Below are positions 31,325-49,330 of a stretch of DNA of 64,000 nucleotides, piece by piece (position 1 is the stretch's first letter; each line of letters opens with the position of its first letter). The translations under genes and the position numbers were made by a program. The notes beneath the pieces are model-generated. The model saw only the letters and a program-made list of their open reading frames with translations. It made no database searches and was not told the DNA's origin. Origin of the DNA: Apilactobacillus ozensis DSM 23829 = JCM 17196 (GTDB lineage Bacteria > Bacillota > Bacilli > Lactobacillales > Lactobacillaceae). Where the stretch lies: contig NZ_AYYQ01000031.1 in assembly GCF_001435995.1 (NCBI RefSeq), positions 62,001-126,000 of the forward strand. Direction: 5' to 3'.

Positions 31325-31530
31325 AATAAAAAAGCTCCGCCCCAAAAAGGGACGAAGCATCGCGGTACCACCCTAGTTTATACAACAATCGTATACAACT
31401 TAAAGTCCTATAACGGTGGACGAACCGAAATGTTTTTTGCCAAAATTGACTCCCAACATTAGCTCGGAAAATGAATTCAGCTATATCAATGTTCATTCTC
31501 ATCCCAATATGAACTTTCTGTAAAGTATAG
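31325..31530 (-). promoter_or_regulatory. T-box: T-box riboswitch of pheST (tRNA-Phe)
   Basis: The minus strand holds the antiterminator core AGGGTGGTACCGCG (31361-31374) followed by a terminator with stem GCTTCGTCCC/GGGGCGGAGC and six T (31328-31358). Upstream is the stem I region, where GAATTC contains a TTC phenylalanine specifier (complement of 31473-31475). Uncharged tRNA-Phe would favour read-through. A TTGACG at 31544-31549 is the nearest -35 candidate. Confidence 0.93.
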
Positions 31531-31599
31531 CTTACTAATTTTTCGTCAAAACTCTTAATTTGATAATAAAATATTTTAATAAATTGGTCAAGGCCATTA

Positions 31600-47113: not shown

Positions 47114-49060
47114 TTATTTATTTTTTCTTGAATAGTTACTAATATCTTCTTGAATGTTCTTAACAAAATCATTAATAGACAATTCTGTACTGTTATCTTC
47201 ACCGTAACGACGTACAGATACTTTATCTGATGATGCTTCATCATCACCTACAACTAAAGTGTAAGGAACTTTATTAGTTTGAGCATCTCTAATTAAGTAA
47301 CCCATTTTTTCATTTCGGCTATCTACGCTAGATCTAATACCTAAAGCAGTTAACTTATTATTAACTTTTTTAGCATATTCACCATGTTTATCCATACTTA
47401 CAGGAATAACTTTAACTTGGTGTGGAGCTAACCAAGTTGGAAAAGCACCCTTGTAAACTTCGATTAGGTAAGCAACAAATCTTTCCATTGTAGAAACTAA
47501 TCCACGGTGAACCATAACTGGACGATGTTCTTTACCGTCTTCACCAACATAATGAAGGTCAAACCTTTCTGGTAGCATGAAGTCTAATTGAATAGTAGAC
47601 AATGTTTCTTCATTTCCCATAGCAGTGTATGTTTGAACATCTAACTTAGGACCATAAAAGGCTGCTTCTCCTTCAGCTTCTACATAGTCTAAACCTAATT
47701 CATCCATGGCACCTTTTAGCATGGATTGTGATTTATTCCACATTTCATCATCATCAAAGTACTTTTCAGTATTTTTAGGATCACGATAACTTAATCTAAA
47801 GTGGTAGTTTTCAATATCAAAGTCTTTGTAAACTTCAACCATAAGATGAAGAATTCGTTTAAATTCTTCTTTAATTTGTTCAATTGCTAAGAAAGTATGT
47901 CCATCATTTAGAGTCATTTCACGAACTCTTTGTAAACCGGAAAGGGCTCCTGATTTTTCATATCTATGCATCATACCTAATTCAGCTATTCGCATAGGTA
48001 ATTCACGATATGAACGAATATGATGTTTAAAAATTTGAATGTGACTAGGACAATTCATTGGACGAAGTTCTAATTGTTCACCATCACCCATGTCCATTGG
48101 AGGAAACATGTCTTCACGGTAATGTGCCCAATGACCAGATGTTTTATATGCATCTAAATTCATTAGAACTGGTGTAATTACGTGTTGGTAACCATTAGCT
48201 AATTCCTTGTCAACAATATATCTTTCAATAACTCTTCTAACTGTAGCACCATTAGGCATCCAGTACGCTAAACCAGCACCTACTTTAGGATCAACAAAGA
48301 ATAAGTCTAATTTGTTACCGATTACTCGATGGTCTCTTTCTTTAGCTTCTTGACGACGTTTTAAATCAGCTTCTAAATCAGCTTTTTTATAAAAGGCTGT
48401 AGCAAAAATTCTTTGAAGCATAGGATTAGAAGATTTACCTTCCCAGTAAGCTCCAGCAACAGATAATAGCTTAAATTCTTTAACATCTTTAGCAGATGGA
48501 AGAACAACTCCTTCACCTAAACTTAAGTAATCACCAATTTGATAGAAAACGACTTCATCACCATTAGCTAATTTATTAACTAACTTAGCTTGGTAAGGAT
48601 CCCCATCAACTTGTTTTAAAGCATCTTCTTTGCTTAAAACTTTGCGTTCAATAGAAACATTATTTTTAACCATTTTACGCATTTTATCTTCTAAGGGTTT
48701 TAATTCATCAGCACTTACTTGAGTATCTTTTTTATCAGTATCAACAAAGAATCCATCTTCATCAGAAGTACTTTCACCAAATTCAATACCTACAAATTGA
48801 TCTGCCAAAGCAGCTTTCAATAATTGTGAAGCAGTTTGTCTCAATACTTTTAGACCATCATCAGAATCTTTTGTGATAATTTCAATTTTACCACCGTTAG
48901 CTAATGGTTCATTGATACCATACATTTGACCATCAATTTTTCCCGCAACAGCTTTTTTAGCCAAACTAACAGCTATGCTTTTAGCAACATCTTCAACCGT
49001 TACACCTTGTTCAAATTCTTTTACACTACCATCTGGAAATTCAAAAGAAAGTTTAGACAT
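47114..49060 (-). CDS. thrS: Threonyl-tRNA synthetase with degenerate editing site
   Basis: 648 aa, full length: TGS domain (1-63), N2 editing domain (about 64-225), class II catalytic core (about 240-535) and C-terminal anticodon domain. The catalytic zinc ligands are intact (Cys in MNCPSH, His in NDGHTF, His in VMVHRG). The editing site is not: RHSxxHL of E. coli reads RQTASQL (Gln75, Gln79), and CRGPHVP reads GEGVVLP (Gly182, Val186), so all four His/Cys ligands are replaced. AGGAGG precedes the ATG. Controlled by a T-box. Confidence 0.96.
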
Positions 49061-49083: not shown

Positions 49084-49285
49084 AAAAAAAGCCCTAGCAC
49101 TATTAAAGTACTAGGGACGTTATTAACGTGGTTCCACCCATATTTACTTACACAATAAATGTAAGCCTCATGTAAAGCCAATTAAGGCATATATAATTTT
49201 TTTGAGAAGTGGTAGCTTAAAATCAACAATTAAGAAAACTTACAGTTAGTGTTTTCTCTCCCTTTAATTGTGAAGATTAAGTCAT
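49084..49285 (-). promoter_or_regulatory. T-box: T-box riboswitch of thrS (tRNA-Thr)
   Basis: Minus strand core GGGTGGAACCACG (49127-49139) and terminator stem CCCTAG/CTAGGG plus seven T (49084-49116). Stem I region includes CTACCACTTCTC, in which ACC (complement of 49211-49213) is the likely Thr specifier, as in Bacillus thrS. Confidence 0.92.
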
Positions 49286-49301
49286 GTCTTCTTTAACTAA
49301 C

Positions 49302-49330
49302 ATTATCATCATTTTTTAATAAAATGTCAA
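49302..49330 (-). promoter_or_regulatory. Promoter of thrS
   Basis: Minus strand TTGACA (49325-49330) and GATAAT (49302-49307), 17 bp apart, just after the dnaI stop. Confidence 0.8.

What the first reader, a model, noticed from the sequence alone, without database searches (positions are those of the whole stretch)
48320..48880. Threonyl-tRNA synthetase appears to have lost its editing site
In E. coli ThrRS the N2 editing site uses His73, His77, Cys182 and His186 (RHSxxHL and CRGPHVP). At the aligned places here the protein reads RQTASQL (Gln75, Gln79) and GEGVVLP (Gly182, Val186): all four are gone, although the domain is kept and flanking segments ([17 protein letters not shown]) align without gaps. 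The aminoacylation core and its zinc ligands are intact. Loss of editing is known in Mycoplasma synthetases, but it is unexpected in a free-living Gram-positive. Ser-to-Thr misincorporation, or a second ThrRS or free-standing editing protein, would follow. The PheRS editing residues in the same window look normal.
Basis: partly seen in the sequence, partly recalled or inferred. Interest (0 to 1): 0.68.

Follow-up and report, generated by a model that had tools for sequence, protein, structure and literature searches.

The report
Lactobacilli's threonyl-tRNA synthetase lost its proofreading
The enzyme that loads threonine onto its tRNA has lost all four catalytic residues of its proofreading site in this Apilactobacillus-like bacterium, and all or nearly all of them in the other lactobacilli sampled, so these bacteria probably make slightly error-prone proteins, something reviews ascribe to host-restricted bacteria and not to free-living ones.

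Summary
Confirmed: the only ThrRS of this Apilactobacillus-like genome has Gln75, Gln79, Gly182 and Val186 in place of the editing residues His73, His77, Cys182 and His186, with no gaps at the motifs. It is no quirk of this organism. Of 144 distinct Lactobacillaceae ThrRS, 121 keep none and 5 keep one of the four; 13 keep HxxxH but have Cys>Asp and His>Leu; 5 (one genus) are intact. All 18 from other Lactobacillales families are intact. A catalytic-core tree puts the complete loss on one branch (36 rows, 32 genus codes); an AlaRS tree is less clear but does not reject that. The N2 domain still folds but diverges about 2.4 times faster relative to the core than in outgroups. Core zinc ligands and the genome's other editing motifs are intact. 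No second ThrRS, AlaX or archaeal Thr-editing protein was found in the genome; a YbaK/EbsC-type protein and DTD are present. Best reading: an old, tolerated loss of Ser-tRNA(Thr) proofreading. Mistranslation was not measured. Side finding: some family members carry Asp for the editing cysteine in ThrRS and AlaRS, with the domain still constrained.

The parts
47114..49060 (-). thrS, threonyl-tRNA synthetase, 648 aa, the only copy found in the genome
48872..49060 (-). TGS domain (residues 1-63)
   Evidence: Pfam PF02824, residues 8-63
48392..48865 (-). degenerate N2 (SAD) editing domain, about residues 66-223
   Evidence: Pfam tRNA_SAD 22.1 bits on the protein, below the cut-off of 24, 26.8 bits in the genome search, not matched at all in the search; confident model close to 1nyq and 1tje
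48824..48838 (-). residues 75-79, QTASQ in place of HxxxH (E. coli H73, H77)
48503..48517 (-). residues 182-186, GEGVV in place of CRGPH (E. coli C182, H186)
47441..48328 (-). catalytic core (about residues 245-540) with zinc ligands C337, H388, H518 intact
47153..47428 (-). anticodon-binding domain, about residues 545-636
   Evidence: Pfam PF03129, residues 548-638
49110..49306 (-). T-box-like leader upstream of thrS
   Evidence: Rfam RF00230, 48.1 bits, E 7.7e-10, below the gathering score of 93

Best explanation
The N2 domain of this ThrRS is a catalytically dead relic, kept as a structural part (and possibly for holding the tRNA) while the enzyme aminoacylates normally. Proofreading of Ser-tRNA(Thr) in cis was lost completely, most likely once, in the ancestor of the lactobacilli and has stayed lost in every descendant sampled, including genomes over 3 Mb. 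The cell lives with somewhat more serine at threonine codons, a mild swap, limited by discrimination in the catalytic site and by the Ser:Thr ratio inside the cell. Shown here: loss of the residues, its distribution, one branch on the ThrRS core tree, relaxed constraint on N2, intact zinc ligands and other editing motifs, absence of known Thr-specific trans-editing proteins in the genome. Inferred: that deacylation is absent, that the domain is a scaffold, and that serine errors are raised and tolerated.
For: All four catalytic residues are replaced in the window protein; 126 of 144 distinct Lactobacillaceae ThrRS keep none or one. Passages of PMC4041444 say that H73A, H186A and C182A/S lower the editing kcat of the E. 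coli enzyme 7000-, 70- and over 500-fold. All 36 lost rows lie on one side of a branch with support 99/97. Of 90 N2 positions conserved in intact enzymes 20 are abandoned in the lost group, against 8 of 250 in the core and 0 of 22 in TGS; median N2/core distance ratio 4.49 in the lost group against 1.84 in outgroups, anticodon domain 3.48 against 3.11. N2 fold predicted with pLDDT 94.5. One ThrRS in the genome. SAD domain in the own genome only in AlaRS and ThrRS; archaeal Thr-editing domain in 0 of 63 genomes. Passages of PMC10057733 say that ThrRS C182A gives little growth defect in E. coli.
Against: No deacylation or misincorporation was measured. The AlaRS tree puts the Asp-type and intact genera inside the lactobacilli (SH-aLRT 86, not starred), which would mean more than one change there; its data do not reject one lactobacilli clade (p-AU 0.256) but do not show it either. 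Pre-transfer editing could still remove Ser-AMP (passages of PMC4267643). A YbaK/EbsC-type protein is present, and members of that superfamily are said to correct ThrRS errors in some organisms (passage of PMC11415595). That same paper lists ThrRS among synthetases whose editing defects give growth defects in bacteria, and PMC10057733 reports a mild defect with excess serine and, for the oxidised enzyme, a severe one without heat-shock proteases. The other Lactobacillales families sampled keep the site, so relaxed need alone does not explain the loss.
Confidence: 0.72

Rival explanations
1. Cis-editing is lost, but accuracy is kept by the aminoacylation site itself: stronger rejection of serine or hydrolysis of seryl-adenylate (pre-transfer editing).
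For: A yeast mitochondrial ThrRS without an editing domain does pre-transfer editing (passages of PMC4267643); PMC11415595 notes that loss of an editing function can go with tighter specificity (passage). Eight positions from residue 245 on differ consistently between intact and lost enzymes (246, 249, 257, 259, 349, 420, 460, 495), 495 being four residues from invariant Gln491.
Against: The three zinc ligands and M335, R366, D386, E465, F468, G482 and Q491 are the same in all 62 enzymes, so no change of the pocket is evident; that these line the pocket is recalled. [quoted passage not shown]
Confidence: 0.18
2. A trans-acting deacylase clears Ser-tRNA(Thr): the resident YbaK/EbsC-type protein or an unrecognised one.
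For: A 167-aa YbaK/EbsC-type protein is encoded on C14; INS-family proteins can correct mistakes of other synthetases, ThrRS included (passage of PMC11415595).
Against: Free-standing frames of this family (by length) also occur in 5 of 5 intact g20 genomes and 10 of 11 intact outgroup genomes, and copy number shows no consistent rise in the lost group. AlaX-like frames are in 2 of 63 genomes, archaeal Thr-editing domains in 0 of 63. The protein's best NCBIfam match is a Cys-tRNA(Pro) deacylase model, slightly under its cut-off (148.4 against 153.25).
Confidence: 0.07
3. The N2 pocket still edits, using other residues.
For: The domain is retained and folds; in a 37-row lactobacilli alignment D107, T108, D109 and most of the [15 protein letters not shown] segment are invariant or nearly so.
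Against: In the lost group the four positions hold many residue types (75: N, Q, A, D; 79: F, Q, L; 182: G, S, A; 186: L, V, Q, I), and the N2 domain is under relaxed constraint.
Confidence: 0.03

Closest known systems
Mycoplasma ThrRS with a degenerate editing domain (Li et al. 2011, PMC3111296, not held; seen only through passages of PMC7302879, PMC10057733 and PMC7373986)
   Same: Editing domain degenerate or mutated at key residues while the synthetase is in use.
   Different: Mycoplasmas are host-restricted with reduced genomes, and some lack two editing activities (passage of PMC7373986); here the trait is shared across many genera of Lactobacillaceae, some genomes over 3 Mb, and the other editing motifs of this genome are intact.
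Yeast mitochondrial ThrRS (PMC4267643, passages)
   Same: A working ThrRS without post-transfer editing.
   Different: The whole editing domain is absent there; here a folded relic remains.
Anabaena ThrRS T2 and ThrRS with the same insert (PMC4787780, passages)
   Same: ThrRS with weakened editing; the authors expect impaired editing also in Mycoplasma and high-G+C Gram-positives that carry the insert.
   Different: T2 keeps HxxxH and DxCRGPH and is helped by its editing-competent partner T1; here the motifs are gone and no partner was found.

Membership tests
Bacterial threonyl-tRNA synthetase (thrS) | Class II core with the three zinc ligands and the anticodon-binding domain | tested here: met
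   Pfam PF00587 and PF03129; C337, H388, H518 in 62 of 62; thrS equivalog far over cut-off
Editing-competent bacterial ThrRS | HxxxH and CxxxH residues of the N2 site | tested here: not met
   0 of 4 residues present
Editing-competent bacterial ThrRS | N2 fold | tested here: met
   AlphaFold model pLDDT 94.5; Z 29.3, rmsd 2.1, 234 aligned to 1nyq and Z 27.0, rmsd 2.6, 221 aligned to 1tje
Naturally editing-deficient ThrRS (Mycoplasma kind) | Catalytic residues of the editing domain lost, aminoacylation core intact | tested here: met
Naturally editing-deficient ThrRS (Mycoplasma kind) | No Ser-tRNA(Thr) deacylation and raised Ser at Thr codons | not testable with these tools
   needs biochemistry and proteomics
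ThrRS with a trans-editing partner of a known Thr-specific kind | Archaeal Thr-editing protein, AlaX-type protein or second ThrRS in the genome | tested here: not met
   single ThrRS; SAD domain in own genome only in AlaRS and ThrRS; PF08915 in 0 of 63 genomes, own included, with 3 of 14 control genomes matching, all archaea

The most novel reading that the evidence does not exclude
A large bacterial family, mostly free-living as I recall its ecology, has run since its lactobacilli ancestor without cis-proofreading of Ser-tRNA(Thr), so lactobacilli, probiotics and food starters included, would have a standing statistical proteome with Ser at Thr codons; and the sister Leuconostoc-type lineage has instead rebuilt its editing site around Asp in place of the oxidation-prone cysteine in both ThrRS and AlaRS, giving a cysteine-free proofreading chemistry.
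Probability: 0.3. Interest if true: 0.82.

Novelty: new member of a known kind. Interest (0 to 1): 0.6.

Why it matters
[quoted passage not shown] An old loss shared by every lactobacilli genus sampled, with genomes up to 3.3 Mb, would break that rule for ThrRS and offer a set of natural candidates for mistranslation in culturable bacteria, with an intact genus of the same family as a control. It also raises a practical point: proteins made in lactobacilli may carry Ser at some Thr positions.

Tried and rejected
Chance misalignment: rejected, no gaps at the motifs against solved ThrRS and 126 sequences with the same loss. Species-specific decay or assembly error: rejected. Second thrS: not found; the weaker hits are, as I read the translations, ProRS (C8) and SerRS (C35). 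AlaX-type rescue: of 63 genomes only G040 (181 aa) and G035 (372 aa) have a SAD hit in a frame that is neither AlaRS- nor ThrRS-sized, apart from a 417-aa frame in G007 that I took for a partial AlaRS and did not pursue. Archaeal Thr-editing domain: 0 of 63. Gain of YbaK-type copies with the loss: no consistent rise. General collapse of editing in this genome: rejected; AlaRS HTATH/CGGNH, ValRS ATTRPET/HDPND, IleRS TTTPWT/GTGLVHTAPGFGEDD, LeuRS TTRPDT/AHDQRD and PheT motifs are present and ProRS keeps its INS domain; which residues in these motifs are catalytic is recalled.

Idea that H2O2 made by lactic acid bacteria oxidised Cys182 and drove the loss: not supported as a general cause, since the other Lactobacillales families sampled keep the cysteine; that some of them also make H2O2 is recalled. 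Class-wide survey (80 genomes besides the own): the ThrRS-sized frames listed score about 63-74 bits for the SAD domain, but the list was cut, residues were not read, G443 and G488 showed one match only and were not pursued, and the own ThrRS was not matched in that run.

Literature: Melnikov et al. 2018 (PMC6298100), a survey of editing loss, and Li et al. 2011 (PMC3111296) are not held, so I cannot exclude that lactobacilli ThrRS is listed in their data. The searches listed no paper that I recognised as reporting it; the listings showed 20 of 22, 20 of 61, 20 of 886 and 20 of 123 papers. All papers were seen as listings, abstracts or passages, one (PMC4041444) also as one section.

Full report
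What is there. The gene at 47114-49060 (minus) is the only threonyl-tRNA synthetase found in a 1.48 Mb, 99.96% complete genome. The closest named relatives are Apilactobacillus species (84-87% identity of ThrRS), so the window is from an Apilactobacillus-like member of the Lactobacillaceae. A T-box-like leader lies upstream (48.1 bits, E 7.7e-10, under the Rfam gathering score of 93).

The editing site. Against S. aureus and E. coli ThrRS of known structure the protein aligns without gaps at both editing motifs and has Q75, Q79, G182 and V186 where the known enzymes have His, His, Cys and His. Positions that I recall as further pocket residues (E. coli Y104, K156, D180) are V, Q and S. The zinc ligands of the aminoacylation site, C337, H388 and H518, are the same in all 62 enzymes aligned. 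Passages of PMC4041444 give the cost of single changes in E. coli: H73A 7000-fold, H186A 70-fold, C182A/S over 500-fold in kcat. Losing all four should abolish editing; this is inference.

How widespread. After merging duplicates there were 165 distinct sequences; three were dropped (one cut by a contig end, two divergent extra copies of G378). Of the remaining 162, the 18 from eight other Lactobacillales families are all intact. Of 144 from Lactobacillaceae, 121 keep none of the four residues, 5 keep one, 13 keep both His of HxxxH but have Asp for Cys182 and Leu for His186, and 5 are intact. By genus code all 40 genera drawn from the family are represented: 32 lost, 7 of the Asp/Leu type, 1 (g20) intact in 5 of 5 genomes. 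No tool named the Asp/Leu genera; that they are Leuconostoc, Weissella, Oenococcus and relatives is my inference from recall, and I call them Leuconostoc-type on that basis.

History. A tree of the catalytic and anticodon part only (62 rows, editing domain left out) puts all 36 lost rows on one side of a branch with support 99/97, and three changes explain the three states. A quick tree from the AlaRS N-terminal part also needs three changes, but there the Leuconostoc-type and g20 rows fall inside the lactobacilli (SH-aLRT 86, not starred), which would require a second loss or a regain. The AlaRS data do not reject one lactobacilli clade (p-AU 0.256), nor do they show it. One old loss is thus the likelier reading, not a proven one. 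Lactiplantibacillus plantarum (L047) and a 3.3 Mb genome (G021) are among the carriers.

State of the dead domain. The N-terminal 241 residues are predicted with mean pLDDT 94.5 and superpose on solved ThrRS (Z 29.3, rmsd 2.1, 234 aligned to 1nyq; Z 27.0, rmsd 2.6, 221 aligned to the editing domain 1tje). So the fold stays. But constraint is relaxed: the median ratio of N2 to catalytic distance is 4.49 in the lost group, 1.84 in outgroups and 1.83 in the Asp/Leu group, while the anticodon domain is about level (3.48, 3.11, 3.64). The TGS domain also runs higher in the lost group (4.7 against 3.36 and 2.98), and the four g20 rows, which are close to each other, give high ratios throughout (2.85 for N2, 7.65 for the anticodon domain). 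Of 90 N2 positions conserved in intact enzymes 20 are abandoned in the lost group, against 8 of 250 from residue 245 on and 0 of 22 in TGS (Fisher p 2.4e-7 for N2 against the core; rows are related, so this is descriptive). Two genera (g3, g6) have in addition lost most of the TGS domain.

Compensation. No second ThrRS. In the own genome the SAD domain is found only in AlaRS and in ThrRS itself. In 63 genomes a free-standing SAD frame occurs in 2, and the archaeal Thr-editing domain in none, while 3 of the 14 control genomes, all archaea, match it. One YbaK/EbsC-type protein and one DTD are present. By frame length, free-standing YbaK-type proteins also occur in 5 of 5 g20 and 10 of 11 outgroup genomes, all with intact ThrRS. 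DTD was searched in the own genome only. The other editing motifs of this genome are present, so this is a loss of one proofreader, not of proofreading at large.

What it does. Most likely the enzyme charges tRNA(Thr) normally and lets some Ser-tRNA(Thr) through. Passages of PMC10057733 say that ThrRS C182A has little growth cost in E. coli and that Thr-to-Ser errors are well tolerated, but also report a mild defect with excess serine and, for the oxidised enzyme, a severe defect without heat-shock proteases; a passage of PMC11415595 lists ThrRS editing defects among those that harm bacterial growth. Pre-transfer editing may lessen the error (passages of PMC4267643). None of this was measured here.

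Known or new. Naturally editing-deficient ThrRS are known from Mycoplasma (passages of PMC7302879, PMC10057733, PMC7373986), and PMC4787780 expects impaired editing in further ThrRS that carry an insert, among them high-G+C Gram-positives. PMC10057733 holds that free-living bacteria keep editing. A loss across the lactobacilli is therefore a large new member of a known kind. The survey that could already list it (Melnikov et al. 2018) is not held, so priority is uncertain.

A side result. In the Asp/Leu ThrRS the N2 domain is not relaxed (ratio 1.83). Of 19 positions abandoned by the lost group that I checked (one search counts 20), 14 are kept in at least 9 of 11 Asp/Leu rows; the others are 126 (2 of 11), 183 (7), 215 (8), 182 and 186 (0). 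This suggests that the altered site may still work. AlaRS has Asp for its editing cysteine in 16 of 48 Lactobacillaceae genomes and in 0 of 11 outgroups, with four changes on a quick tree (three forced by starred branches) and an unchanged editing/catalytic ratio (1.20 with Asp, 1.23 with Cys). A cysteine-free editing site in two synthetases of one family is the boldest lead from this work.

Noticed in passing
AlaRS loci among L189-L245, L256, L257, e.g. L224, L229, L234: AlaRS editing-site cysteine (CGGxH) is Asp (DGGxH) in 16 of 48 Lactobacillaceae genomes sampled and 0 of 11 outgroups; four changes on a quick tree, domain still constrained.
   Followed up: partly
L132, L133, L135-L144, L147, L148: Leuconostoc-type ThrRS keep HxxxH but have Cys>Asp and His>Leu in a conserved motif ([DE]LD[KR]GGLVP), with N2 as constrained as in outgroup enzymes.
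   Followed up: partly
L124, L125, L129, L134, L251: Two genera (g3, g6) have ThrRS lacking most of the TGS domain; one genome (G042) has two such ThrRS genes.
   Followed up: partly
L252 7187-9094, L253 8031-9953: Genome G378 (another Lactobacillales family) has an intact ThrRS plus two divergent extra ThrRS (about 35% identity to the query) whose editing motifs are gone.
   Followed up: partly
window 31345-31558: T-box leader (103.7 bits) next to the phenylalanyl-tRNA synthetase genes, as I read the neighbouring frames.
   Followed up: no
L254 and L255 (G040, G035): SAD-domain hits in frames of 181 and 372 aa (AlaX-like by length), seen in only 2 of 63 genomes.
   Followed up: no
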